NCBI GenBank assembly: GCA_024278415.1
Contig: JAJRTI010000579.1
Coordinates: 1-12,352, forward strand
DNA from: Planctomycetota bacterium
Lineage (GTDB): Bacteria > Planctomycetota > Brocadiia > JAJRTI01
Reading direction: 5' to 3'
Length of the DNA stretch: 12,352 bases
Below the pieces are notes generated by a model. It did not search any database. It saw nothing but the letters and a program-made list of their open reading frames with translations, and was not told the DNA's origin. Positions 1-12,352 of this stretch are shown here, in pieces (within the stretch, counting starts at the first letter, position 1; every line of letters starts with the position of its first letter). Made by a program: the position numbers and the translations under genes.

Positions 1-33
1 CTGATCATCTGGCGATTTGCCATCGGGGCAGAG

Positions 34-56
34 GGCGCCCTTACGGTCGCCACTAC
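34..56 (-). repeat. REP-like singlet (GTAG plus GNRA-loop hairpin)
   Basis: Read on the minus strand from 56, the tetranucleotide GTAG is followed by an imperfect hairpin with arms GGCG and CGCC, an A/G mismatch, an inner CC/GG and a GTAA loop. GTAG or GGAG followed by a hairpin is the hallmark of bacterial REP sequences mobilised by RAYT (TnpA-REP) transposases. Its partner would lie left of the window if it forms a doublet. No RAYT gene is present here. Confidence 0.65.
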
Positions 57-99
57 GAGCGGGCCGCTCCCGCGGCCGCACAGCGGTGGCGTCATGCTT

Positions 100-177
100 G
101 TAGTAGGCCCGTGAGGGCCTTCCGCTCGGATAACGCTTCGCCATCGGGGCAGAGGGCGCCCTTACGGTCGCCACTAC
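100..177. repeat. REPIN-like doublet: two REPs in inverted orientation
   Basis: On the plus strand, 100-119 reads GTAG followed by a perfect hairpin, GGCCC-GTGA-GGGCC (106-119). On the minus strand, 177-155 reads GTAG followed by the GGCG/CGCC hairpin with a GTAA loop. The GTAG ends face outward and the hairpins inward, so the unit begins GTAG and ends CTAC, as in REPIN elements. Both loops are GNRA-type on the strand that carries GTAG. A diverged copy lies inverted at 11995-12071. Confidence 0.7.
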
Positions 178-182
178 GAGCG

Positions 183-198
183 GGCCGCTCCCGCGGCC
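183..198 (-). terminator. Possible 3'-end stem-loop after the NapA-like gene
   Basis: A perfect 6-base GGCCGC/GCGGCC stem with a GGGA tetraloop on the minus strand lies 24-39 bases past the stop codon of the last operon gene. No T-run follows, so it is not a standard intrinsic terminator. It could protect the mRNA 3' end or help termination, as REP hairpins do in other bacteria. The same hairpin recurs at 62-77. Confidence 0.35.
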
Positions 199-221
199 GG
201 CACTTCAGTCGTGGCATGACA

Positions 222-2924
222 CTAGATCCGCTCGATCCGTGCGGCGATCTTCTTGTAGTCGACTTGGCCGGACACGGGGTCGTAGGCCCGGTGCGAGGTC
301 GCGTTCACGAGCCACTTGTTTTTCTTGGGATCGGCCGAGTCGGCCACCGACAGGTTCCAGGGCGAGAAGAGATAGCCTTCGGGGACTTCGTTGCGCGCGG
401 GCCGCACTTTGCTGCGCAGGCCGCCGATGCTCACGCGCGCCTCGTAGGAGCCGCGGCGGGTGGTGATGCGCACCTTGTCGCCGTCGCGGAGGCCGTTGCG
501 TTTGGCGTCCTCCATGTGCATTTCCACGTACTGTTCCGGCACAAGCCGCCGCGTGGTGGCGCCGCGGATCGTCTTGGCCGAATGGAAGTGCTCGTACACG
601 ATGCCCAGGCCCAGCCAGAAGGGGAACTTGTCTTTCGGCACGTCGCGCCAGTGCTGCTTGGCGTGGTCCGTGTCCGGCCATTCGGGCGTGAGCGCCATGT
701 CCCGGGCGGCGTCGAGCACGGACTTGTGCGCGCTCGCGTAGTAGTCCTTCTCCGTGCCCATCTTGCGCAACTCGGCCAAGACTTCTTTGGCCTTCGAGTA
801 GTCTTGCCGGCAGACCTTGAAATGCATCTTGCCGTCTTTGTGGCGGAAGGGCCCATAGGGCTTGCCCGCCCATCCTTCTTGGTCCATGTAGCGCCGGGGC
901 GTGCCCCCCTGCTTGGCGATCTCGTAGGTCGGCGCGGGCCACTGGACGCCGCGGAGCCGGCGGATCTGGTCGTAGAGGCCGATGCCGTCGCGCTCGCGCA
1001 CCTCGAGCATGCCGGTCATGTCGCAGTCCGCGCCCTTCGACGCCTTGACCATCTCCTCGAACACTTCCTCCGCGTCGTAGAGCGCGGGCCCGTCGGGGTG
1101 GAACTTCTTCTTCTTGTAGGGGAACATCGCGTCCGCGTCGAGCCCCAGCCGCTTGGCCAAGGCTTTGCCCTTGTCGATGGCCATGTCCAGGTCGGGCAGG
1201 CAGTTCTCCAAACCCTGTGCGCCCTTGCCAACACCGTCCACGACGTTGAAGCGGCGCTCCGAGGAGATGTACGTGCCGCCCTGCCATTCGCCCCACGTGA
1301 GCGCGGGTAAGACCACGTCTGCGTACAGCACGTTCGGCGCGTGCCGGTAGATGTCCTGCACGACCACGAACATGTTCTTGAGCGCGGGCCGGATCAGCGT
1401 GTTGATATCCGGCTGGTGCACGTGGGTCGTGTACATGTAGAACATGGCCTTGACCGGGTCGAGGCCTTGTTCCTTGAGGATTTTTTCGGGCATGAGCGCG
1501 CGCTCGAACAGGCCCACCATCATGCCGGGGTTCTTCATGCCAGCCACGTTCCTGAGGTTCTGTGCGGGGCACTTCCACGCGTCGGCGATGATGTTGATGC
1601 CCTTTTCATTGAGCTTGCCTGCCTTGCCGAGGCCTTGGTTGAAAGGCAGCCGGCCGGTGAGCCCGCCCATGAGGCGCTCGCCCATCGCGTTGGGTTGGCC
1701 GGTCATGGAGAACGGCCCCGCGCCGGGCCGGCCCAGGTTGCCGGTGAGCGCGTGGAGGTTGATGACGCTGATGACGTTGTGCTGGCCGTGGATGTGCTGG
1801 TTGTAGCCGATGCCCCAGAAGGACAGCACGCCGCCGCGGCCGTTGCGCCGGCCTTTGCGGGACGCGTCGGCCCACTGCTGCGCGATCTTGCGGATGCGCT
1901 CGGGTTCGATCATGGTGCGGTCCTGCACCTTCTCAGGCGCGTACTCTTCCTTCATCGCCCTGATGTACTCCTGCCAGCCCGCGGTATGGGCCTTGAGGAA
2001 GTCGTAGTCGACCACGTCTTCGTGCTGGGTGATGATGCAGTGGGCGATGGCGTTGAGGATCGAGATGTCGCCGTTGATCGTGGAGAAATGCTCGCTGTTG
2101 CGCGGGTTGATCGACTCCAGCGCGCCCACCGTGCCGGTGCGCCGGGGGTCCACCACCAGCGTGGGGATGTCGCTCTTCTTCTTGTAGTCCGCGCAGCGCC
2201 AAAACACGATGGAGTGGCTCGACCGTGCGTTGTGGCCCCAGAAGGTGATCATGTCCGCCTGCTCGATATCGTCGTAGCACAACGGCGGCGTGTCGGAGCC
2301 GAGCGTAGCGAAGTAGGCGGTGACCGCGGACGTCATGCAGACGCGTGCGTTGGCCTCGATCGAGTTGGACTGAACCACGCCCTTCATGAGCTTGTTTTCC
2401 ATCCACTGCGCTTCGACCGTGAGCTGCCCGGAACCATAGAGGCCGACGGAGTTGCCGCCGAACTTCTTGATGACCGCGGCGATCTTGTCCGCCACCATCT
2501 CTTCGGCTTCCTCGTACGTGGCCTCGCGGAACACGCTGTCGTCGAACCGGCCTTTCGTGTTGGAGACATGGCCCGTGACCGGGTCGTTCATGTCCTTGCG
2601 CACGAGGACCTTGGTGAGCCGGTCGACGTACGTGGGCTCGTCCGCGTTCAGGCCTTTGATGCACTGCACGCCTTTGTTGGTGGGGTGTTGCTTATCGGGC
2701 ACGACGCCGAGGATCCGGCCGGACGCGTCGGCCTTGATCAGCGTGCCGCAGCCCACGCCACAGTAGGGGCACTGGGCGAGGTAGGTCGTGAGACCCGTGG
2801 CGCCGCCCTCCTCGGCGAGGATCCTGTCCGGGGCGAAGATCAGACTGCCCAGGCCCAGGCCGGCCGCGCCCGCCACGCCGCCCTTGATGAAGTTGCGTCG
2901 GCTGATGTTCTTGCCTTTCCTCAT
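222..2924 (-). CDS. Tat-exported NapA-like molybdopterin oxidoreductase (probable periplasmic nitrate reductase)
   Basis: This 900-residue protein has an N-terminal Tat signal (SRRNFIK at 8-14, then a hydrophobic stretch to about residue 36). A [4Fe-4S] site follows (C52, C55, C59, C88), with K90 in the usual relay position. C196 in ARVCMTSAV matches the Mo-ligating cysteine of NapA/Nas enzymes. CYDDIEQAD, GQPNAMGER, FPFWLGLGIVYEHFH and a C-terminal DPVSGQVDYKKIAAR also match that lineage, so nitrate reduction is the best guess. It is longer than E. coli NapA (about 830 residues), with extra sequence seemingly between residues 590 and 740. It is the last gene of the operon. Its ATG lies one base after the cytochrome stop, with GAGG inside that gene as ribosome site, so translation is probably coupled. 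No NapB, NapC or NapD gene is seen. Another Mo-dependent oxyanion substrate or the reverse reaction cannot be excluded. Confidence 0.82.
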   Translation of the reverse strand: MRKGKNISRRNFIKGGVAGAAGLGLGSLIFAPDRILAEEGGATGLTTYLAQCPYCGVGCGTLIKADASGRILGVVPDKQHPTNKGVQCIKGLNADEPTYVDRLTKVLVRKDMNDPVTGHVSNTKGRFDDSVFREATYEEAEEMVADKIAAVIKKFGGNSVGLYGSGQLTVEAQWMENKLMKGVVQSNSIEANARVCMTSAVTAYFATLGSDTPPLCYDDIEQADMITFWGHNARSSHSIVFWRCADYKKKSDIPTLVVDPRRTGTVGALESINPRNSEHFSTINGDISILNAIAHCIITQHEDVVDYDFLKAHTAGWQEYIRAMKEEYAPEKVQDRTMIEPERIRKIAQQWADASRKGRRNGRGGVLSFWGIGYNQHIHGQHNVISVINLHALTGNLGRPGAGPFSMTGQPNAMGERLMGGLTGRLPFNQGLGKAGKLNEKGINIIADAWKCPAQNLRNVAGMKNPGMMVGLFERALMPEKILKEQGLDPVKAMFYMYTTHVHQPDINTLIRPALKNMFVVVQDIYRHAPNVLYADVVLPALTWGEWQGGTYISSERRFNVVDGVGKGAQGLENCLPDLDMAIDKGKALAKRLGLDADAMFPYKKKKFHPDGPALYDAEEVFEEMVKASKGADCDMTGMLEVRERDGIGLYDQIRRLRGVQWPAPTYEIAKQGGTPRRYMDQEGWAGKPYGPFRHKDGKMHFKVCRQDYSKAKEVLAELRKMGTEKDYYASAHKSVLDAARDMALTPEWPDTDHAKQHWRDVPKDKFPFWLGLGIVYEHFHSAKTIRGATTRRLVPEQYVEMHMEDAKRNGLRDGDKVRITTRRGSYEARVSIGGLRSKVRPARNEVPEGYLFSPWNLSVADSADPKKNKWLVNATSHRAYDPVSGQVDYKKIAARIERI

Positions 2925-2925
2925 C

Positions 2926-5511
2926 TCATTTCCTCGCTCTCGATTGAAAACTTCTCAGGTAGGCGACAATGTCGTTGACGTCTCGGGACTCCAGCTCCAC
3001 CACTCCCTGGCCGCCGCGGGTCATGGGCCGCATGCCCGATTCGTGGCGCCCCAGGGCGAGGGTGGCTTGCAGATAGCTGTCGGTGGCCGCATGGAGGAAC
3101 GTTTGGCTCAGCAAACGCGGTGCGTAGCCCTCCTTCGCGTCCGTGCCGTGGCATTGGGCGCACTGCCGGGCGTAGAGCGCGGCTCCATTGAGCGGCGTGC
3201 CGCGCACGACCTTGGGCTTCATGAGCGGCGCGTCTTGTTGGCTGCGCAGGTAGGCGACGATGGAGCTGGTTTCGTGTTCCCCGAGTTTGGCCACGCCGTC
3301 GCCGCCAGGGGCAAACCCGCGCATCTCTGTGCCGGATCGGCCGTTGGTGATCATGCCTTGGATGAACCCATCGGACACGCGGCTGAGGAAGCCTCGCCGG
3401 CCGATGGCCGGGCCGTTGCCGCCGCCGCCGTACGCGCCGTGGCACTGTGCACAGGCCCGCGCAAACCGTTCCCGCCCCAACTGCACGTCGCCCTCGACCG
3501 CGGCCACGCCGCGCGACGGAGCGGGCCGCGTCTCGAACGAGCGGATGTACGCGACGACGCCGTTCACGGCCAACTCATCCAAATCCGTCGTGCCGTCGGC
3601 CCCGCGCAGGTTCCCGCGCATCTGCGTGCCGGTCCGGCCGTACGCGACCGTCTCCTTGATGAACGCGTCGCTCGCGGCCGTGAGGAAGCTCCGGCCGAGG
3701 ATCGCGGGCCCGATCTTGCCCTGGCCCTTGGCGCCGTGGCATTGGGAGCACACGCTGTCAAAAACCTCGCGGCCGCGGAACTCAGAGCCCACTACCCGGG
3801 CGCGCTTGTCGAGCGTCTTCGGTTTGTTCTTGGAGTGCGTTCGAACCCAGGCGAGGATGGCCGCGAGCTCTGTATGGCGCAAGTGGGCCCACGAGGGCAT
3901 GGCCGTGCCTTGCCGGCCTTTCACCACGGTCGTGGCAAGAAACTCGTCGTCCGCGAGGGTCTGGAACTCCGGGCTGGAGAGGGACGGGCCGATGCCGCCC
4001 TGGGCGTCCAGGCCGTGGCAGGGCGCGCAGTTGCTGCGATACAGGGATTCGCCGAACTGCGACGAGGCCTGCGGGAGGCGCTTTAGCACGGCCTCGACCG
4101 TGGCCGTCGGACCGCGTAGGGACAGCACATAGGCCATGGTGTCGGCGATCTGGGTCTTGTCCAGGAAGTGCCATGCCGGCATGGCGGTGTTCGGCCGGCC
4201 GTTGACGAGCATGTCGTAGAGGAACTGGCGGTCGATATAGGAGAGCAGTTCTGGCGTGTTCAACGTAGGGCCGACCAGGTCGGCCTCAAACTCGCCGGCG
4301 ATGCCGTGGCAGGCGGAGCAATTGCCTTCGAACAGGGCGCGGCCGTAGCGCGGCTGGCCCGCGACGGCGTCGACCTCGGCGAGCGAAGGTGCGGGCTTGC
4401 GCAACGACAGCACAAACTCGGCGATGGCGTCGATCTCTTGCCCGTTCAGCCCACCGTCTTGGCCCCATGCCGGCATGATGCGGCTCTGGGAGTTGCGCAC
4501 CACGTAACGCACGAAGGGCTTGGTCACGATGGAGAGGAATTGCGGGTTGCCCAGCGCGGGCCCGACCTTGTCTAGCTCGCGCAGATCGGTGCCTTCGCCG
4601 GTCTTGCCGTGGCAGGCCGAGCAGTAGAGGAGGTAGAGCCGGCGGCCGGCCAGCAGAGGCGTGTCGGCCGATCCCTGGCGCCGGGGCTTGGGGCGAGCCA
4701 CGTACGCCTCGGGCACAGCGTCGTCGCGCAGGGACTTCAGGTAGATCGTGACCGCGTCTGCGTCCTGGTCCGAGAACTTGTAATCCACCATGGCCGAGTC
4801 TTTGGGCTGGGCCTTGGGTTCCTTGACCGACTCGTAGAGGTACGCCAGGTTCACGTTGCCATGGAACTTGGCGAGCAACCGATGCCGGTTTTTCTTGGAG
4901 GGAGCCTTCTCGTAGAAGGACGCGTTGCCGATGTTGGTGAGTTCCGGCCCCAGGTGGCCGCCTTTGCCCCGCACGACGTGGCATCCCATACAACCGTTCG
5001 AAACGAAGACCTGCTCGCCTCGGCGATAGGCCGTGGCGGACTCGGGCATGTCGGCTCGGTGGCAGCGCGCACAATTGGCTTGGGCCAAGGCGCCTTCGAG
5101 CCGCGGCCGCTCCCAGAAGGGGATGCCTGCGGCGTGTGCGTCCCGCGCGTTCACGGCTCGCCCCTGGCCATCGTGGCAGATGGTGCACCCGTAGCGCTCG
5201 ACGTCGTGGTCATCGAGGAACTTCCCGGGGTGCGGCGCCAGCGGATTGGGCTGGCCCTTCATGCCAGGGTCTTCCATGGCCACGTGGCAACTGACGCAGC
5301 GGTCGGTACGGTTCAGTTCGGGGAGCACGATCTGGCGCAGTTGGATCGGGTAGTCGACGGCCTTCTTTCCAGTGGCCGCGGCCCGCGCGTGGAGCGCGGC
5401 CGCGTACTGCTTCTGGTAGCCCTTCCACGCAGGCCGGGCGATCTCGTTCGTCATGGCTACGGCAAGCAGCACGATGACGGCGCAGCTCGATACGAGGAGT
5501 AGCTTCTTCAT
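2926..5511 (-). CDS. Decahaem cytochrome c with six tandem class I domains
   Basis: The 861-residue protein begins with one hydrophobic segment (3-20), either a signal peptide or an anchor, so it should be periplasmic and perhaps membrane-tethered. Ten CxxCH sites are visible, at C72, C109, C147, C174, C297, C398, C495, C588, C687 and C784. The first four sit in a multihaem-type region. The last six sit in repeated units of about 100 residues. Distal methionines fall in two sub-patterns: MPAW/MPSW at M346, M444 and M538, and MR(G/P) at M631, M730 and M827 or M830, suggesting His/Met haems and domain duplication. Similar anchored multihaem subunits accompany Rieske/cytochrome b complexes in other bacteria. 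Lying between the complex genes and the molybdoenzyme gene, it is the natural electron carrier joining them. There is no clear Shine-Dalgarno before the ATG. The stop TGA is one base from the next start. Confidence 0.88.
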   Translation of the reverse strand: MKKLLLVSSCAVIVLLAVAMTNEIARPAWKGYQKQYAAALHARAAATGKKAVDYPIQLRQIVLPELNRTDRCVSCHVAMEDPGMKGQPNPLAPHPGKFLDDHDVERYGCTICHDGQGRAVNARDAHAAGIPFWERPRLEGALAQANCARCHRADMPESATAYRRGEQVFVSNGCMGCHVVRGKGGHLGPELTNIGNASFYEKAPSKKNRHRLLAKFHGNVNLAYLYESVKEPKAQPKDSAMVDYKFSDQDADAVTIYLKSLRDDAVPEAYVARPKPRRQGSADTPLLAGRRLYLLYCSACHGKTGEGTDLRELDKVGPALGNPQFLSIVTKPFVRYVVRNSQSRIMPAWGQDGGLNGQEIDAIAEFVLSLRKPAPSLAEVDAVAGQPRYGRALFEGNCSACHGIAGEFEADLVGPTLNTPELLSYIDRQFLYDMLVNGRPNTAMPAWHFLDKTQIADTMAYVLSLRGPTATVEAVLKRLPQASSQFGESLYRSNCAPCHGLDAQGGIGPSLSSPEFQTLADDEFLATTVVKGRQGTAMPSWAHLRHTELAAILAWVRTHSKNKPKTLDKRARVVGSEFRGREVFDSVCSQCHGAKGQGKIGPAILGRSFLTAASDAFIKETVAYGRTGTQMRGNLRGADGTTDLDELAVNGVVAYIRSFETRPAPSRGVAAVEGDVQLGRERFARACAQCHGAYGGGGNGPAIGRRGFLSRVSDGFIQGMITNGRSGTEMRGFAPGGDGVAKLGEHETSSIVAYLRSQQDAPLMKPKVVRGTPLNGAALYARQCAQCHGTDAKEGYAPRLLSQTFLHAATDSYLQATLALGRHESGMRPMTRGGQGVVELESRDVNDIVAYLRSFQSRARK

Positions 5512-5560
5512 GGAGGTGTCGTCTTCTGATGGGCCGAGACGGAAGCGATCGCCGGGGCCG

Positions 5561-6121
5561 TCAGACCCAGAAGTGCGGATACTGACGGCCCTTGGGGATG
5601 TTGTTCACGAGCAGCGCGATCACGAGCATGACCAGGGCGCCTGCGGCCACGGGCACGGCCACGTAGAGGTATCCCAGTGCATGGATCCGCTCGCTGCCGA
5701 TGACCGCGATCAGCGCGGTGGCGCCGCCGGGAGGATGCAGCGTCTTGGTCGCGTGCATGGCCGCGATGGCCGTTGCGACGGCAGCGGCCGATGCCAGCCA
5801 CGCGTTGGGGCCAAGCAATTTGTAGGCGGCCACTCCGATGACGGCCGACACCATGTGCCCGCCGATGAAGTTCCGCGGCTGGGCCAGCGGACTGTTGACC
5901 GCACCGTAGATGAGCACCGCGGATGCGCCGAAACTGCCGATGATGAACGCCAAGTCCGTGCGCTCGACGAGCGATACGTGCATGTAGGAGACTGCGGTGA
6001 TGCCCAGGATCGAGCCGAGCCAGGACCAGCCAATCTCGGACAGACTGACCCTGGGCGGGCTCTTGGAGGAGCCCTTCATCTTGGCGAAGTAGCCCGGGGC
6101 GTCGTCGCGGTCTTCCGTCAA
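5561..6121 (-). CDS. HPP-family integral membrane protein (possible nitrite/nitrate transporter)
   Basis: Starting at TTG 6121, which overlaps the cytochrome b stop (TTGA), the product has 186 residues. It shows the family signature LHPPGGATAL (residues 128-137) and the conserved SFGASAVLIYG...SPLAQPRNFIGGHMVSA stretch (63-93). About four to five hydrophobic segments cover roughly 31-47, 58-74, 86-104, 107-124 and 148-172. Plant-chloroplast and cyanobacterial HPP proteins have been reported to transport nitrite, in some cases nitrate too. Here the gene sits within an operon ending in a NapA-like enzyme, so moving nitrite or nitrate is a reasonable inference, though a structural role in the complex is also possible. 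The start is uncertain: GTG a few codons upstream and ATG at 6079 are alternatives, and no strong ribosome site is seen before any of them. It ends 49 bases before the cytochrome c start. Confidence 0.83.
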   Translation of the reverse strand: MTEDRDDAPGYFAKMKGSSKSPPRVSLSEIGWSWLGSILGITAVSYMHVSLVERTDLAFIIGSFGASAVLIYGAVNSPLAQPRNFIGGHMVSAVIGVAAYKLLGPNAWLASAAAVATAIAAMHATKTLHPPGGATALIAVIGSERIHALGYLYVAVPVAAGALVMLVIALLVNNIPKGRQYPHFWV

Positions 6122-7683
6122 TGAATCGGCCACTGTGATTTGGACCAGTAAAAATGCCAGTTCGGTCCGCGGTGGACCGTAGCGAAGTAGGTCATGATCA
6201 CGAACGCCACGGCCAAGCAGGTGAACATGGCGAGCGTGCCCATGTGGGTGCTGCGATGGCGCAGCAGCGCCAGAAACGACCACGCGGCCATGATTCCCAC
6301 GAGAATCGTGCCAGGGTTGATGAACGTGATGACGATCTGCGGGAGGTCGGGGTACGCCTTGCGCACCCATGCCCACTCACGCAGCCAGCCGAAGTTGACC
6401 GTGGCCACCAGCATGCCCACGACGGCCACCGCGGAGAACAGGAGGGACTGAAGCACCACGCGCCGGCCTCGCTCCCCGCCAAACCAGCGGCCGATGCCGG
6501 CCTCTTCGCGGTCGAGAAACGGGACGAGCGCCAACGCGAGCATGACGAGCGCAGGGATGCCGATGCCGCCCATGAACGCGGAATAGGAGACCAGTTCCTG
6601 GAGGCCCAAGAAGTACCAGGGCGCTTTGGCCGGGTTCTCCGGCACGGCCGGGTTCGCCGCCTCCTTGAGCGGAGCGTCGAACGCGAGGCCCAACGCGAGC
6701 AAGACCGCGAGCACGGTCATGAACACGGCCATCTCCGCATAGAGCAAGTGCGGCCAGCTTGGCACGGTGTGCTCGGGGCCTCGATTGACCGCCGGCGAGC
6801 GGCCCCCCACGACACACATGAGGCCGTAGGTTTTGGATTCGCTGGGTTGGAATGCCTGCTCCGCCTTCTCGTCCTTGGGCGTGCCTTCGAGATCGGCCTC
6901 GGTCAGGTCGTCGGGCCGGGTCATGCCGCCATCCTTGCGGATGCGCCAGAAATGCGCGGCGAGCAGCACGGTCAGGCCCACCGGCAACACGACGCAGTGG
7001 AGCCAGTAGAAGCGAATGAGCGCTTCTTCACCCACGCTGTTCGAGCCGAGGATGAGTTGCTTCTGCAACTGGCCGATGTTGAACACGTCGGTCAGGCCCA
7101 GCGCGTCGGTCAACTCGTTGGGCGAGGAGGCGATGTTCGCGCCAATGGTCGTGGCCCAATAGGCAAGCTGGTCCCACGGCAACAGGTAGCCGCTGTAGCT
7201 GAGCACGAGTGTGAGCACGAGCAACGCGAGGCCGATGAGCCAGTTGAACTCGCGGCCGCGCTTGTACGCGCCGGTGAAGAGGACCCGCGCCATGTGGAGC
7301 ATGACCGCGGCCACCATGAGGTGGGCCGCCCAGCGGTGGATGTTTCGGATCAGCCGCCCGGCCGGCACGACGTAGTGGATGTCCTTGACGCTCGAGTACG
7401 CGCCCGCGGCCGAGGGCTTGTAGTAGACCATCAACAGGATGCCGGTGGCGGCCAAGGTGAGGAACAGGCTGATCGAGGCCAGGCCGAGCCCGAGCGTGAA
7501 GCTGGGCTTGAGGCTGTGGCGGTGCGTGCGCGTGCTGTGGATGTGCAAGAAGACGTTGGAGAACACCGACTGCGATCGCGCGCGGTCGGTGACCGGCGGC
7601 CCGTGTCTCACGACCGCGTTTTTTACGTTCAGCGGAAGCGCAATGAGGTTCTTGATTACCGCTGCGACACCAGAGCTTGACAT
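6118..7683 (-). CDS. Cytochrome b of a Rieske/cytochrome b complex (b6 plus subunit IV-like fusion)
   Basis: This 521-residue membrane protein carries the two b-haems and quinol sites of a bc-type complex. The haem ligands appear as H116/H130 and H229/H244. The 14/15 spacing is that of cytochrome b6, not mitochondrial cytochrome b (14/14). The b6-like half covers about residues 60-250. A charged linker (250-310) follows, then a subunit IV-like half with about four to five further helices. The Qo-site motif PEWY appears as APWY (354-357), so the usual glutamate is missing; variants of this kind occur in menaquinol-using complexes. An extended N-terminal region of about 60 residues precedes the first helix. 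The ATG has AGGA eight bases upstream and lies 34 bases after the Rieske stop. The stop codon overlaps the proposed HPP start. Confidence 0.93.
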   Translation of the reverse strand: MSSSGVAAVIKNLIALPLNVKNAVVRHGPPVTDRARSQSVFSNVFLHIHSTRTHRHSLKPSFTLGLGLASISLFLTLAATGILLMVYYKPSAAGAYSSVKDIHYVVPAGRLIRNIHRWAAHLMVAAVMLHMARVLFTGAYKRGREFNWLIGLALLVLTLVLSYSGYLLPWDQLAYWATTIGANIASSPNELTDALGLTDVFNIGQLQKQLILGSNSVGEEALIRFYWLHCVVLPVGLTVLLAAHFWRIRKDGGMTRPDDLTEADLEGTPKDEKAEQAFQPSESKTYGLMCVVGGRSPAVNRGPEHTVPSWPHLLYAEMAVFMTVLAVLLALGLAFDAPLKEAANPAVPENPAKAPWYFLGLQELVSYSAFMGGIGIPALVMLALALVPFLDREEAGIGRWFGGERGRRVVLQSLLFSAVAVVGMLVATVNFGWLREWAWVRKAYPDLPQIVITFINPGTILVGIMAAWSFLALLRHRSTHMGTLAMFTCLAVAFVIMTYFATVHRGPNWHFYWSKSQWPIH

Positions 7684-7717
7684 GGTGGTGTTCCTATGAC
7701 GAGTGACGCGGCCCGGA

Positions 7718-8188
7718 TCAGACGTAGAACTTCGTGCCTTGCGGCACGTGGGCGCTGGTGTCGACGGATAGGCGGCCGTTGGGCAGTTGGTCGATCTTGA
7801 GCCAAGGCAGCGCCTTGGGCGCCGGGCCGCCGGTGACCTTGCCGACCGCGTCGAACTTCGATCCGTGGCAGGGGCAGGCGAAGCCCGTGTCCTCCCAGGC
7901 GACGATGCAGCCCAGATGGGTGCAGATGAGCGAGATCGCGTACAAGCCGTCGTCGTCGGAGAAGATGACGAATTTCATCTTTGGGAACGCGCGCACCGTG
8001 CCCGGCGGGAAGCGCCCCGCGGTGCCGATCTTGTACCGCGTCGAGCGCTCCGGCAACACGCTCGGCCGCACCAGCCTCAGCATGCACAGAAGGGCCGCGC
8101 CAAGCGCGCAGAAGAAGGCCGTCACTGACGCCATGCCAAGCACGTCGCGGCGAGAGACCGTTGGGGTCGGGGGAGCTTCCTCGCTCAC
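7718..8188 (-). CDS. Rieske [2Fe-2S] protein of the cytochrome b complex
   Basis: The 156-residue product starts at GTG 8188, which overlaps the preceding stop (GTGA) and has a strong ribosome site. A twin-arginine motif (SRRDVLG, 12-18) and one hydrophobic helix (about 19-40) form the usual uncleaved Rieske anchor. Cluster box 1 is CTHLGC (89-94) and box 2 is CPCHGS (105-110). C89, H91, C105 and H108 bind the cluster, and C94 and C107 form the expected disulphide. It would take one electron from quinol at cytochrome b and pass it to a periplasmic cytochrome, here most likely the decahaem protein. A longer in-frame reading back to 8272 exists but would run through the upstream gene and bury the anchor, so it is not used. 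Confidence 0.95.
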   Translation of the reverse strand: MSEEAPPTPTVSRRDVLGMASVTAFFCALGAALLCMLRLVRPSVLPERSTRYKIGTAGRFPPGTVRAFPKMKFVIFSDDDGLYAISLICTHLGCIVAWEDTGFACPCHGSKFDAVGKVTGGPAPKALPWLKIDQLPNGRLSVDTSAHVPQGTKFYV

Positions 8189-10050
8189 AGCGCTACCTCC
8201 CTGAACTGGAAACGTTCCATCGTGATTGCGCCGACCGGACAGCGGTCCGCACAGCAGCCGCAACGGATGCAACGCGTCTCATCCTTGATGATGGCGCTCG
8301 ATCCATCAGTGCGGTCGCCGACGTGGCGCTTCAGCAACTCGTCCGCGGCGTCGTTGTCCACGGCTTCAATAGGCACGAGCTTCAGGCACAGCTCCGGGCA
8401 CACGTCGACGCAGCCGCCGCACAGAATGCATTTGGAGCCGTCGAAGATGGTGTTGACGCCGCAGTCGAGACAGCGTTTGGCCTCCGCGCAGGCGGCCTCA
8501 TGGGGCAGCCCGTATTCGACGGGCACGCCCACCGAGGTGACACGCTCGGCCGGCGCGCGCGTGGGGATCGACTGCCGCGGGATGCCCTCGTACCCCGGCT
8601 CGCGTTGGAAAGGCTCAATCGCAAAATGCCGCGTCTCTACCTCGAACGGCAATTCTTGGCCGACGAGATACCGGTAGACCGACCGCGCCGCCTGCTTGCC
8701 GCTGGCGATGGCGTGGATCATGAGCTTAGGGCCGGTGGCCAAGTCGCCAGCCACGAACGTGCCCTCGCGGGTCGTCATCTGGGCATCGTCAATCGCGGGC
8801 AACCCGCGCTCGGTCATCTGGATGCCGTCGCGGTCAGGGTCGATGAACGACAGGTCGAATGCCTGGCCAATGGCTAGCAACACCGAATCGGCCTCGATCT
8901 CGGTCGTGCAGGACTTGTCGAAGACGGGGTTGAATCGCCCATCGGCGTCGAAGATGGACTTGACCGCCACAAACCGCACCCCGCGCACCTTGCCCTCGCC
9001 GTCGATGAGCACCTGGTCCGGGCCCATGCTGTTGTGCCGAATGACTCCCTCCTCTTCGCCCTCTCGGATTTCGATCTCGTCGGCCGGCATTTCCGTTTCC
9101 GACTCCAGGCAGCACAGATGCACCTCCCGCACGCCAGCCATGCGCGCCGCGGTGCGGGACACGTCGCCCTCTTCGTGGCGCAGCACGGTGCGGGACACGT
9201 CATACGCGACGTTGCCGCCGCCGATCACCACTACCTTCTGGCCCAGCTTGACACTGTCGCCAAGCGCCACGTCCCGCAGAAACTCGACTCCGCCGAACAC
9301 TCCCTCCGCTCCGACGTTGGGAATGTTGAGTCCCCGGGACTTCTTGGCACCCACCGCGAGGATCAGCGCTGGGTGCCGCGCCTGGAGTTCCGACAGCGAC
9401 ACGTCCTTGCCCACGTGCGTGCCGGTGTGGATGGCGACGCCGAGTGACTCGATGAGCGCGACCTCGGCGCGTATGACGTCCCGAGGCAGACGGTACTCAG
9501 GAATGCCGAGGTAGAGCATGCCTGCCGGCACGCGCTCCATCTCGTAGACCACGGGGCAGAAGCCCATGAGCGCGAGGTCGTGCGCGGCCGCGAGCCCGGC
9601 CGGGCCGCTGCCGACAATGCCCACTTCCTGGCCGTTTCCCTTGGCCACACGGCCCTTGCTCATGAGCACCCCAAGCGCGCCCGCTTCGTTCAACCCCGCG
9701 CAGTCTCGTGAATGAATCGAGTCGCGCAATTGTGCGATCAGCGCTTGGTCGGCCTCCGATTGTCTTGCCCTATGTTCGGGCTCACAAGCCACGCGCTTGA
9801 GTGCGCGGATACTGATGGGCTCGTCAATGCTGCCCCGGCGGCAAGCCGCTTCGCACGGCGCACCGCAGACACGACCACAGATGGACGCAAGTGGGTTCGG
9901 ACCCCGTGCGATCAGATACGCCTTTTCAAAGTCCCCGGCCGCAATCGCCTGAATGTAGCCCCGAGCGTCGGTGCCCACCGGACAGGCGAACTGGCAGTTG
10001 ATCTGTGCCCGCCAGTAGTTGATGTCGGGGATGATGACGGGGTAGCGCAT
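8185..10050 (-). CDS. FAD/NAD(P)-dependent oxidoreductase, GltD-like, with C-terminal ferredoxin domain
   Basis: The 621-residue protein has no export signal and should be cytoplasmic. An N-terminal Fe-S region has cysteines at C19, C23, C58, C62, C66 and C70, as in the small subunit of glutamate synthase and related enzymes. The FAD site is GSGPAG (147-152), the NAD(P) site is GGGNVA (277-282), and the second flavin motif is GTFVAGD (430-436). The C-terminus has a CLDC pair (527-530) and two [4Fe-4S] motifs (C541/C544/C547/C551 and C594/C597/C600/C604). No glutamate synthase large subunit is nearby. As first gene of a Rieske/cytochrome b operon it resembles the NAD(P) oxidoreductase subunits encoded with anammox Rieske/b complexes. 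The likely role is electron exchange between the complex and NAD(P) or ferredoxin. The start has only a weak AGAGG close to the ATG. The stop overlaps the Rieske start. Confidence 0.88.
   Translation of the reverse strand: MRYPVIIPDINYWRAQINCQFACPVGTDARGYIQAIAAGDFEKAYLIARGPNPLASICGRVCGAPCEAACRRGSIDEPISIRALKRVACEPEHRARQSEADQALIAQLRDSIHSRDCAGLNEAGALGVLMSKGRVAKGNGQEVGIVGSGPAGLAAAHDLALMGFCPVVYEMERVPAGMLYLGIPEYRLPRDVIRAEVALIESLGVAIHTGTHVGKDVSLSELQARHPALILAVGAKKSRGLNIPNVGAEGVFGGVEFLRDVALGDSVKLGQKVVVIGGGNVAYDVSRTVLRHEEGDVSRTAARMAGVREVHLCCLESETEMPADEIEIREGEEEGVIRHNSMGPDQVLIDGEGKVRGVRFVAVKSIFDADGRFNPVFDKSCTTEIEADSVLLAIGQAFDLSFIDPDRDGIQMTERGLPAIDDAQMTTREGTFVAGDLATGPKLMIHAIASGKQAARSVYRYLVGQELPFEVETRHFAIEPFQREPGYEGIPRQSIPTRAPAERVTSVGVPVEYGLPHEAACAEAKRCLDCGVNTIFDGSKCILCGGCVDVCPELCLKLVPIEAVDNDAADELLKRHVGDRTDGSSAIIKDETRCIRCGCCADRCPVGAITMERFQFREVAL
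8193..8201 (-). promoter_or_regulatory. Ribosome binding site that fixes the Rieske GTG start
   Basis: GGGAGGTAG lies within the last codons of the FAD/Fe-S gene. The GGAGGT core ends 6 bases before GTG 8188. It is the strongest Shine-Dalgarno in the operon and supports the GTG start overlapping the upstream TGA. Confidence 0.8.
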
Positions 10051-10503: not shown

Positions 10504-10902
10504 TTATTCAGATTTCGCAAGGAGGTCCGACACCCTTCGAGCAAGCGTATTGAAATCCACAGGCTTGTCAAGGAAATCATCGATTGGCAGACAATCTTCG
10601 TCGATGTCTTTTCGGCTGAAACCGATTGGGAATCGGTTATTGATGGCAGACAGGACCAGAACGGGTATGCCACTCAGCTTGCTGTATTCTTGCCGCATCT
10701 CCCTGGCCACCTTGAAGCCGGCGGAGCTGTCTTCTGGGAACATGACGTCAAGGATCACTAAGTCCGGCGGGCGCTCCTGCATGCAGGCGAGAGCACGGTC
10801 TGTCGTCTGTTCGACCTGCACCTCGTGGCCCATGGCCTTGAGGACCATGGTGGCCGCGGCCGAGAAGTCCTGGTCGTCATCCACAATCATTATATAAGCC
10901 AT
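10504..10902 (-). CDS. Stand-alone receiver-domain response regulator
   Basis: The 132-residue protein is a single REC domain with no output domain. The acidic pocket is D8-D10, the phospho-acceptor is D52 (LVILDVMF), the switch residue is S85 and the conserved lysine is K113 (FLDKPVD). The D52-K113 distance is about ten residues longer than in CheY, because an NNRFPIGFSRKDIDEDCLP-type insert (88-106) lies after beta strand 4. Such proteins act by binding a partner or as relays, not on DNA directly. No histidine kinase is in the window, so its signal is unknown. It begins 48 bases after moaA and has an AAGGT ribosome site, so the two could share a transcript. Its codons look less GC-rich than those of the neighbours. 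Confidence 0.85.
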   Translation of the reverse strand: MAYIMIVDDDQDFSAAATMVLKAMGHEVQVEQTTDRALACMQERPPDLVILDVMFPEDSSAGFKVAREMRQEYSKLSGIPVLVLSAINNRFPIGFSRKDIDEDCLPIDDFLDKPVDFNTLARRVSDLLAKSE

Positions 10903-10950: not shown

Positions 10951-11901
10951 CTATCCCCCTATGGCCGCGAGCGGTGCGGTTGGTCGCTGGGTGCGTCGGG
11001 TGGTCTTCTGGCTCATCGCCTCTGCCACCAACTGTGTGAGACGCTCTGGGGTTCGCTCGTTTTGCAGCCACGGTCTGAGGTCAATGCCATCGCCCCGCAT
11101 GAGGCATCCAATCAGCTTGCCCGACGCCGTGAGGCGAAGGCGCCTGCAATGGGAGCAAAAGGGCAGACTCTCCGGCGCGATGATGCCGATCGTTCCGGAC
11201 CGGCCTGCTTCGTCGCGGGCATGGTACAAGTCTGCTGTCGTTCCCGGTGCGTCGGGGATGGGCTCCATCGAGAACCGATGGCGCAGCCGATCCATGATCT
11301 CCGCTCGCGGCACATGCCATAGCCGATGGTTGTGCCGCGTCGGCCCCAGCCGCATCAGCTCTAAGAAGCGCGGCTGGAACCCGTGTTGCCAGGCGAACTC
11401 CACAAGGGCGGGAAGCTCGCCTTCATTATACCCGCGAATCACGACCGTGTTGAGCTTAATCGAGCGAAAACTCGCCTGCCGCGCCGCCTCCAGGCCGGCC
11501 AACGTTCGCCGAAGTTCTCCACCGCGAGTCAAGCGCTCGAAACAGCCCGGGAGGAGTGTATCCAGGCTGACGTTGAGGCGCAAAACCCCGGCTTCCCTCA
11601 ACGCGCCGGCCCACGCAGCCAGTCGCTGCCCATTGGTCGTGAGCGCGAGTTCCACGCCCGTAGTGTGCAACTGCTGCACCAAGCCCAAGAGGCCGCGTCG
11701 CACCAAAGGCTCGCCCCCGGTAATACGAATTCGTTTGACCGGGCAGGCCAGGACAATGCTCTCGACAACAAGCGCAAGTTCCTCCAGATTCAGAATCTCC
11801 CCGGGCGCCGCACAGGGCACGCCTGCCTCAGGCATACAATAGCGGCAGCGCAGATTGCATCTGTCGCTCACAGAGACCCGAAGGGTGTCGATGCGCAGCA
11901 A
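10951..11901 (-). CDS. moaA: GTP 3',8-cyclase MoaA (molybdenum cofactor synthesis)
   Basis: This 316-residue radical SAM enzyme makes the cyclic intermediate from GTP that leads, through MoaC, to cyclic pyranopterin monophosphate. The N-terminal SAM cluster motif is CNLRCRYC (C15, C19, C22), followed by ITGGEPL (60-66). The C-terminal cluster cysteines are C249, C252 and C266 in the FCSHCRRLRLT...GCL pattern. The protein ends in the GG pair (315-316) typical of MoaA. The start must be the TTG at 11901, because an in-frame TGA lies five codons upstream and no other start codon lies between; a G-rich ribosome site (11904-11911) precedes it. Its place between two molybdoenzyme genes fits cofactor supply for them. 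No moaC, moaE or moeA is seen nearby. Confidence 0.93.
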   Translation of the reverse strand: MLRIDTLRVSVSDRCNLRCRYCMPEAGVPCAAPGEILNLEELALVVESIVLACPVKRIRITGGEPLVRRGLLGLVQQLHTTGVELALTTNGQRLAAWAGALREAGVLRLNVSLDTLLPGCFERLTRGGELRRTLAGLEAARQASFRSIKLNTVVIRGYNEGELPALVEFAWQHGFQPRFLELMRLGPTRHNHRLWHVPRAEIMDRLRHRFSMEPIPDAPGTTADLYHARDEAGRSGTIGIIAPESLPFCSHCRRLRLTASGKLIGCLMRGDGIDLRPWLQNERTPERLTQLVAEAMSQKTTRRTQRPTAPLAAIGG

Positions 11902-11935
11902 GGCTCCCCCCTGTCAATGGCCAAAGAAGGTCGAA

Positions 11936-12075
11936 CTAGTGGCATGTCACGACTGAAGTGTCGAAGGCGGCGCGGCCACGGGAGCGGCCCGCTTGTAGTG
12001 GCGACCGCCAGGCGCCCTCCACTCCAATGGCGAACCGTCACCCGAGCGGAAGGCCCTCACGGGCCTACTACAAGC
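11936..12075 (+). repeat. Right copy of the dispersed REP-containing element
   Basis: This 140-base stretch is the diverged, inverted partner of 96-225. It starts CTAGTG, contains CACGACTGAAGTG and GGGAGCGGCCCGCT, and ends CTACTACAAGC. The GC-rich hairpin is degraded here by extra bases. It fills most of the gap between moaA and the upstream molybdoenzyme and overlaps the last codons of the latter. Confidence 0.8.
11995..12071. repeat. REPIN-like doublet, right copy
   Basis: Plus-strand 11995-12016 reads GTAG followed by a GGCGACC...GGCGCC hairpin with loop GCCA. Minus-strand 12071-12052 reads GTAG followed by the perfect GGCCC-GTGA-GGGCC hairpin. The GTAG ends point outward, as in the left copy. 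The GGCCC hairpin is unchanged between copies, while the other REP has loop and stem changes. Confidence 0.7.
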
Positions 12076-12352
12076 GCGGCGACACCTTCGTGATGCGCAC
12101 ACAGGTATCGTAGAAGCTGGCGCTGCCGCCAATGGGGTCGGTGAGGCAGACGTTGCCGACCACCGTGTCTTCCAGCATGAGCGGGTTGGGCACGATGCCT
12201 CCGCCGCGCGTCGGGTCGCCTTTGACGACCTTGCCATCAACCGTGACGTCCCGGGAGCCGTAGGCCCAATGCCCGAAGTGCCAGGAGATACCGACCACAC
12301 CGGGGCGCATGCCCTCGATGGCCATCACCGTCGTCTCCAGGCGTTTGACCTC
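12068..12352 (-). CDS. Molybdopterin oxidoreductase, C-terminal fragment (5' part outside window)
   Basis: The frame is open from the window edge and gives 94 residues up to a TAG at 12070-12068. It contains VVGISWHFGHWAYGSRDV, a NPLMLEDTVVGNVCLTDPIGG stretch and a terminal CVRITKVS. This looks like the end of the molybdopterin-dinucleotide-binding domain of a large CISM-family enzyme, closer in feel to the tetrathionate, polysulphide or arsenate type than to NapA. The substrate cannot be told from this fragment. The nearby moaA supports a molybdoenzyme. The stop codon lies within the GTAG of the adjoining REP, so the last residues may have been altered by arrival of the repeat. Confidence 0.62.
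   Translation of the reverse strand, partial: EVKRLETTVMAIEGMRPGVVGISWHFGHWAYGSRDVTVDGKVVKGDPTRGGGIVPNPLMLEDTVVGNVCLTDPIGGSASFYDTCVRITKVSPRL

What the first reader, a model, noticed from the sequence alone, without database searches (positions are those of the whole stretch)
222..10050. Candidate quinol-bifurcating Rieske/cytochrome b complex wired to a NapA-like enzyme
Six coupled genes encode a cytoplasmic FAD/NAD(P)/Fe-S subunit, Rieske protein, b6-type cytochrome b, HPP membrane protein, decahaem cytochrome c and a Tat-exported NapA-like molybdoenzyme. Rieske/b complexes with an NAD(P) oxidoreductase subunit are known from anammox bacteria, where quinol bifurcation has been proposed. A terminal NapA-like reductase in the same operon would let the exergonic branch (quinol to nitrate) drive the endergonic branch (quinol to NAD(P)+ or ferredoxin). 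The gene order is seen; the mechanism is inference.
Basis: partly seen in the sequence, partly recalled or inferred. Interest (0 to 1): 0.78.

Follow-up and report, generated by a model that had tools for sequence, protein, structure and literature searches.

The report
NADH-linked Rieske/cytochrome b nitrate-reductase operon
An uncultured bacterium carries one operon that joins a quinol-oxidising membrane complex, a flavoprotein that probably handles NADH and a probable periplasmic nitrate reductase; relatives keep the core but swap the last enzyme, which makes a debated idea about how cells make NADH testable outside anammox bacteria.

Summary
In detail: six tightly packed minus-strand genes (10050 to 222) encode an FAD/Fe-S oxidoreductase, Rieske protein, fused cytochrome b, HPP protein, ten-haem cytochrome c and Tat-exported NapA-like enzyme. 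The core is of the anammox NAD(P)-linked Rieske/b kind: the best solved match of the Rieske protein is Kuste4569 (9rk4). The order without HPP recurs in 7 of 80 fetched cytochrome b loci and 5 further genomes. HPP is not conserved (0 of 80). New here: the slot after the cytochrome c is swappable (NapA-like, NarG, DMSO-II Mo enzyme, NosZ, cbb3 oxidase; 44 of 64 loci with enough downstream DNA), and in the window's own cytochrome b clade a true NarG takes the place of the NapA-like enzyme, which argues for nitrate. The haem cN cysteine is absent (Cys in 1 of 77 rows) and the Arg pair of NADPH-using relatives is Leu-Glu (Glu in 69 of 71), pointing to NADH. Direction of electron flow, assembly and activity are untested; no NapG/NapH is seen in the window's last 221 nt. 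New variant of a known kind.

The parts
8185..10050 (-). FAD/NAD(H) oxidoreductase, GltD/NfnL-like, with ferredoxin-type C-terminus; four [4Fe-4S] clusters inferred from 16 conserved Cys
7718..8188 (-). Rieske [2Fe-2S] protein (CTHLGC...CPCHGSKF), N-terminal anchor; starts in a GTGA overlap with the flavoprotein stop
6118..7683 (-). cytochrome b, b6-like half fused to five-helix subunit-IV-like half; H116/H130/H229/H244 for two b haems; no Cys for haem cN; APWY Qo motif
5561..6079 (-). HPP-family membrane protein, possible nitrite transporter; not conserved in this place
2926..5511 (-). ten-haem (10 CXXCH) cytochrome c with N-terminal membrane anchor
222..2924 (-). Tat-exported NapA-like Mo-bisMGD enzyme, Cys196 as probable Mo ligand, one N-terminal [4Fe-4S]
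10504..10902 (-). response regulator receiver protein upstream of the operon; link to it not tested
10951..11901 (-). MoaA, molybdenum cofactor synthesis (TIGR02666 above cut-off)

Best explanation
The operon encodes a Rieske/cytochrome b complex of the anammox NAD(P)-linked kind, wired to a periplasmic nitrate reductase. Menaquinol (inferred) is oxidised at the Qp site. One electron goes through the Rieske protein and the ten-haem cytochrome c to the NapA-like enzyme, which reduces nitrate to nitrite. The other goes down the two b haems, then through four [4Fe-4S] clusters and FAD to NAD+ in the cytoplasm. The exergonic nitrate branch pays for NADH. Shown by sequence: gene order and its recurrence, cofactor motifs, loss of the cN cysteine, Leu-Glu in the nucleotide site, interchange of terminal enzymes. 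Inferred: assembly into one complex, direction of flow, nitrate, NADH, menaquinone.
For: Rieske: best PDB match 9rk4 = Kuste4569, third 9rk3 = Kustd1480 (measured +303 and +335 mV in that paper); the potential-raising Ser is present in 76 of 76 rows. Flavoprotein: best PDB match 9bov/9bp5 NfnABC, the same entry (9bp5) that the anammox authors found for their reductase; 16 Cys kept in 64-68 of 71 rows. Flavoprotein gene in 70 of 80 loci, GTGA overlap here. Cys for haem cN in only 1 of 77 cytochrome b rows; PMC12954380 names that haem and quinone reduction beside it as problems for the model. Terminal enzyme downstream in 44 of 64 loci, none of five Mo/NosZ probes in 45 upstream flanks. NarG (1468 bits, cut-off 1084) in the slot of L001, inside the window's 99/97 clade. 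All 7 NapA-linked loci have ten haems, as here; 0 of 62 other counted loci do. With menaquinone near -70, nitrate +420 and NAD -320 mV (values in PMC12954380 and the PMC6195509 abstract) the exergonic step gives 490 mV against 250 mV needed.
Against: No biochemistry. NapA-like scores 302-322 bits against NapA cut-offs of 904-931. NapG/NapH-like genes in relatives offer the enzyme another quinol donor, and the same enzyme occurs without the Rieske/b core in L106, L107, L109, L111 and L113. H47, my candidate for the anammox interface-haem ligand, is also invariant where no flavoprotein gene is near (L065, L038, L040), and it lies in a stretch of the model with pLDDT under 50. L011, a NapA-linked locus, keeps Tyr-Arg-Arg, so NADH does not fit all. 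L064 and L065 lack a flavoprotein gene within about 10 kb. 20 of 64 loci show no recognised terminal enzyme.
Confidence: 0.45

Rival explanations
1. Same complex, flavoprotein used the other way: NADH is oxidised by the FAD subunit and feeds quinone or cytochrome b on the negative side, so the operon is an NADH:quinone:nitrate supercomplex with an ordinary proton-pumping Q cycle.
For: Nothing in the sequence fixes direction. A quinol-cytochrome c reductase feeding Nap is shown by mutant in Campylobacter jejuni (PMC6195509, abstract). Loss of haem cN also leaves a bc1-like negative side.
Against: PMC12954380 argues that NADH oxidation this way would waste energy that complex I could conserve. 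High-potential type Rieske residues fit a low-potential partner branch (inference).
Confidence: 0.25
2. The flavoprotein is only a genetic neighbour; Rieske/b, ten-haem c and NapA-like form an ordinary electrogenic nitrate chain.
For: Rieske/b with Nap but, as far as the passages show, no NAD module is described in Caldithrix abyssi (PMC5317091 passages); Rieske/b next to nitrate reductase in haloarchaea (PMC4683180 passages). In an Acidobacteria group the flavoprotein gene sits downstream of the oxidase genes.
Against: GTGA overlap here, presence in 70 of 80 loci with differing terminal enzymes, and reported comigration of the subunits of Kuste4569-4574 (PMC12954380).
Confidence: 0.12
3. The core works as proposed but the NapA-like enzyme reduces something other than nitrate (for example selenate or chlorate).
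For: About 30% identity to known nitrate reductases on plasmids and its own clade (100/100).
Against: Cys-Met and GQP...Arg as in NapA/NasA, not Cys-His/RG..NVQG of formate dehydrogenases; NapG/NapH-like neighbours; exchange with NarG in the window's clade; HPP next door, a family with a nitrite transport role.
Confidence: 0.13
4. The Mo enzyme runs as an oxidase and the complex carries out reverse electron transport to NAD+.
For: Conceivable for the DMSO-II/NXR-lineage loci.
Against: No NapA-type enzyme is known to me as an oxidase; NapGH-like quinol dehydrogenases beside it in relatives.
Confidence: 0.05

Closest known systems
Anammox Rieske/cytochrome b complexes Kuste4569-4574 and Kustd1480-1485 (PMC12954380)
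   Same: Rieske kinship, b6-like four-helix plus five-helix SUIV-like parts, NAD(P) oxidoreductase related to NfnABC with four Fe-S clusters, multihaem c
   Different: Cytochrome b halves fused here; no Cys for haem cN; ten haems instead of six or eight; terminal partner NapA-like instead of an HAO-like cytochrome or none proposed; Leu-Glu nucleotide motif (not compared in the anammox proteins)
Periplasmic nitrate reductase NapA with NapGH
   Same: Tat export, one [4Fe-4S], Cys-Met at the Mo site, GQP...Arg; NapG/NapH-like genes in relatives
   Different: Fails NapA cut-offs, about 30% identity, 900 against 828 residues in E. coli, no NapB/NapD seen, clade of its own
Qcr-driven Nap of Campylobacter jejuni and the Nap/Rieske-b cluster of Caldithrix abyssi
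   Same: Quinol-oxidising Rieske/b complex supplies periplasmic nitrate reductase
   Different: No flavoprotein module is mentioned in what I read of those papers
Cytochrome b6f
   Same: b6-like half, Rieske ligands
   Different: No cytochrome f, no haem cN Cys, Pro instead of Glu in the Qo motif, extra helices

Membership tests
NAD(P)-linked Rieske/cytochrome b complex (anammox type) | b6-like four-helix cytochrome b with a five-helix SUIV-like part | tested here: met
   fused into one chain; model of moderate confidence
NAD(P)-linked Rieske/cytochrome b complex (anammox type) | NAD(P) oxidoreductase subunit with FAD and four Fe-S clusters | tested here: met
   domains, Cys sets and NfnABC match by sequence
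NAD(P)-linked Rieske/cytochrome b complex (anammox type) | High-potential Rieske (Ser in second sphere) | tested here: met
   residue only: Ser in 76 of 76 rows, window has Phe at the Tyr place like Kustd1480; potential not measured
NAD(P)-linked Rieske/cytochrome b complex (anammox type) | Multihaem c in place of cytochrome c1 or f | tested here: met
   10 CXXCH
NAD(P)-linked Rieske/cytochrome b complex (anammox type) | Haem cN | tested here: not met
   Gly65 at the Cys35 column; Cys in 1 of 77 rows. It is a feature of the anammox models, not shown to be required; I file the window as a variant, not as that same complex
NAD(P)-linked Rieske/cytochrome b complex (anammox type) | Dimer-interface b haem on a His pair | tested here: inconclusive
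   H47 in 77 of 77 rows, R505 in 73 of 73; anammox cytochrome b sequence not in hand, H47 in a low-confidence stretch
NAD(P)-linked Rieske/cytochrome b complex (anammox type) | Physical complex and NAD(P)+ reduction | not testable with these tools
   needs purification or multimer modelling
NapA periplasmic nitrate reductase | Curated NapA model cut-off | tested here: not met
   301.5 of 930.55 and 321.5 of 904 bits
NapA periplasmic nitrate reductase | Mo-Cys followed by Met, GQP...Arg, N-terminal Fe4S4, Tat | tested here: met
   one-residue gap before the Arg as in NasA-type rows
NapA periplasmic nitrate reductase | Nap partner genes | tested here: inconclusive
   NapG/NapH-like genes follow in relatives; not in the window's last 221 nt
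Formate dehydrogenase | His after the Mo-(Se)Cys and RG(Q/H)(N/D)NVQG motif | tested here: not met
   two of three reference dehydrogenases have the His
Canonical cytochrome bc1 or b6f | Cytochrome c1/f and Glu in the Qo motif PEWY | tested here: not met
   ten-haem c instead; Pro at the second motif position in 75 of 75 rows

The most novel reading that the evidence does not exclude
A widespread, modular quinol bifurcase that makes NADH: one conserved core (flavoprotein, high-potential Rieske, cytochrome b without haem cN) on which evolution exchanges the high-potential exit (nitrate by NapA-like or NarG, N2O by NosZ, O2 by cbb3 oxidase, other Mo enzymes), giving several uncultured lineages a direct quinol-to-NADH route.
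Probability: 0.35. Interest if true: 0.92.

Novelty: new variant of a known kind. Interest (0 to 1): 0.72.

Why it matters
The proposal that Rieske/b complexes can bifurcate quinol electrons to NAD(P)+ rests on two complexes of anammox bacteria, and for one of them no high-potential reaction has been proposed (PMC12954380). A family outside anammox with a defined high-potential exit, a predicted preference for NADH and no haem cN is a cleaner test case. If true, it would change how NADH supply and energy budgets are drawn for many uncultured bacteria that respire nitrate, N2O or O2.

Tried and rejected
Whole genome of the window: none held. HPP as a conserved part: rejected. H54 as interface-haem ligand: rejected, His in 60 of 77 rows. 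H47 as a mark of the NAD wire: weakened, present also without a nearby flavoprotein gene. N-oxide reductases as the only terminal partners: my first generalisation, dropped when cbb3 genes were found in 17 loci. Formate dehydrogenase reading: rejected on motifs. NapG/NapH in the window: not found in 221 nt. APWY in print: one search gave 0 papers; the Qo-motif paper is not held.

Limits. Terminal-enzyme probes were picked from these loci after looking, so 44 of 64 is descriptive; the upstream flank is the only control, and one CcoN lies upstream (L031). Class labels rest mostly on BLAST to a scanned representative: HMM-scanned were L001, L025, L037, L031, L005 and the CcoN of L043, L061, L033, L078; NosZ in L070 rests on 37% identity. 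Eleven loci had no matched cytochrome c and were not counted for haems; L066 has a separate ten-CXXCH protein that is no homologue by that match. Cytochrome b rows under 370 aa (L074, L079) and L115 were left out of the tree; L115 and L117 out of the tree. Long branches were flagged.

Full report
What is in the window. Junctions are tight: a GTGA overlap between the flavoprotein and Rieske genes with GGAGG ahead of it, and 1 nt between the cytochrome c stop and the NapA-like start. Upstream on the same strand lie a response regulator, MoaA (above its cut-off) and the tail of another ORF with a weak match to ArrA/TtrA. No whole genome is held, so the host is unknown.

Flavoprotein. It is GltD/NfnL-like; its best solved relatives are 9bov/9bp5, NfnA (9n5u) and 8oh5. 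The anammox authors found 9bp5 (NfnABC) as the nearest fold of their own reductase. Sixteen cysteines are kept in 64-68 of 71 rows. The RCLxC half-motif that stands at the N-terminus in 4ylf and 5jca stands behind the flavin domain here, as in 9bov. I infer two GltD-type and two ferredoxin-type [4Fe-4S] clusters, the number drawn in the anammox models. Where NfnL/GltD relatives have Tyr-Arg-Arg, this family has x-Leu-Glu: Glu in 69 of 71 rows, Arg in two, L011 and L080. An acidic residue there is a classical sign of NADH over NADPH (recalled).

Rieske and cytochrome b. The best solved match of the Rieske protein is 9rk4 (80 bits), the third 9rk3; PMC12954380 deposits these as Kuste4569 and Kustd1480. 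The potential-raising Ser is present in 76 of 76 rows. Cytochrome b has its four haem His in every row with a letter there, Pro at the second position of the Qo motif in 75 of 75 rows, and Cys at the haem cN position in 1 of 77 rows (L080). PMC12954380 (sections 3, 13 and 14 read, other passages by search) puts haem cN at about -50 mV and calls quinone reduction beside it a large problem for the bifurcation model. This family has no Cys to hold that haem. The AlphaFold2 model (mean pLDDT 67.9) shows four then five long helices but is poor at H47 and at the Qo motif.

Conservation. One scan with a 27-row cytochrome b alignment kept the best 80 of 557 confirmed loci. A flavoprotein gene is present in 70 of 80; of the ten without, L064 and L065 have about 10 kb on both sides and truly lack it nearby, L038 has 4.7 kb upstream without it, and the other seven have short flanks or, for L051, L053 and L055, resemble a group with the gene further downstream. 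The exact order flavoprotein-Rieske-b-c on one strand holds in 40 of 65 loci with at least 3 kb upstream and 1.2 kb downstream; the rest show a cytochrome c too divergent to match, a split cytochrome b, a moved flavoprotein gene or a missing part.

The slot after the cytochrome c. In 48 of 80 loci it holds one of: NapA-like (7), a DMSO-II alpha subunit of NarG/NXR lineage, mostly with NarH-like, EB_dh and TorD-like genes (17), another Mo enzyme (2), NarG (1), NosZ (4), cbb3 CcoN/CcoO (17). Representatives were named by HMM. Of 64 loci with at least 4.5 kb downstream 44 have such an enzyme and 20 do not; of 45 loci with at least 8 kb upstream none has one of the five Mo/NosZ probes upstream, while L031 has a CcoN upstream. 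The seven NapA-linked loci all have a ten-haem cytochrome c, as the window has; 0 of 62 other counted loci do. The core-bearing regions L104, L105, L110, L112 and L115 also have ten.

The NapA-like enzyme. Genome searches at E <= 1e-100 gave 2 of 193, 12 of 343, 3 of 198, 6 of 247 and 5 of 247 genomes (the last three drew many of the same genomes). The carriers with the core fall into at least three groups drawn as phyla: that of L062 and L104 (Omnitrophota by title), that of L004, L019, L105, L110 and L112 (Planctomycetota by title), and one that holds L011, L012 and L115 and probably L010; L074 is titled Myxococcota. Of 17 regions taken out, five carry the core upstream; L106, L107, L109, L111 and L113 lack it; the others are truncated or distant. 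NapG- and NapH-like genes, below their curated cut-offs, follow in most. So the enzyme can be fed without the core, probably by NapGH. In a 29-row tree its clade is 100/100 and joins NapA at 95/96, with long branches flagged. Its Mo-site columns follow NapA/NasA, not formate dehydrogenase. It misses NapA cut-offs widely, so I call it NapA-like.

Swapping. In a 51-row cytochrome b tree the six terminal classes need 11 changes (least possible 5; shuffled mean 27.5, as low in 0 of 200). The window lies in a group of four (99/97) with L062 and L104 (NapA-like) and L001 (NarG); its nearest row by path is L001. That a true NarG takes the slot of the NapA-like enzyme among the nearest relatives is the best evidence for nitrate.

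Mechanism. With menaquinone near -70, nitrate +420 and NAD -320 mV (PMC12954380; PMC6195509 abstract) one electron to nitrate yields 490 mV and one to NAD+ costs 250 mV. With ubiquinol (about +100 mV, recalled) the sum would be uphill, so the model predicts a low-potential quinone. HPP may carry nitrite (PMC7438415 passages, citing Maeda 2014), which would suit nitrite made in the periplasm, but among the loci examined it is peculiar to the window.

What is known. Rieske/b complexes that feed Nap or Nar are known (PMC6195509 abstract; PMC5317091 and PMC4683180 passages). NAD(P)-linked Rieske/b complexes are known in anammox. My ten searches listed no paper that, by title or abstract start, joins this flavoprotein core to NapA, NarG, NosZ or cbb3 genes; the library holds open-licence papers only, and Kartal 2013 and ten Brink 2013 were not seen. 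Verdict: a new variant of a known kind, with a general pattern worth testing.

Noticed in passing
window 1-228 and 11933-12086: A repeat stands at both ends of the contig in inverted orientation (76 nt arms 86% complementary, 40 nt arms 90%), with two direct 66-nt copies (97%) at 13-78 and 134-199; it frames the operon plus MoaA. Nature unknown.
   Followed up: no
window 12068-12352, minus strand: C-terminal end of another ORF cut by the contig edge, weak match to ArrA (6e-5) and TtrA (2.5e-4) Mo enzymes.
   Followed up: no
L043, L045, L046, L049, L054, L057: Environmental Chlamydiae carry the flavoprotein-Rieske-b core with a 1078-1364 aa seven-haem cytochrome and cbb3 oxidase genes behind it.
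   Followed up: partly
L030, L031, L032: Nitrospirae loci put NosZ behind the same core, with two-haem cytochromes between.
   Followed up: partly
L064, L065: Bacterial cytochrome b relatives with SPWY and an eight-haem cytochrome c but no flavoprotein gene within about 10 kb: a possible NAD-free sister type.
   Followed up: no
L066, L068, L069, L072, L073, L060, L070: Seven cytochrome b rows have Tyr at the haem cN column and Lys or Thr in place of H54.
   Followed up: no
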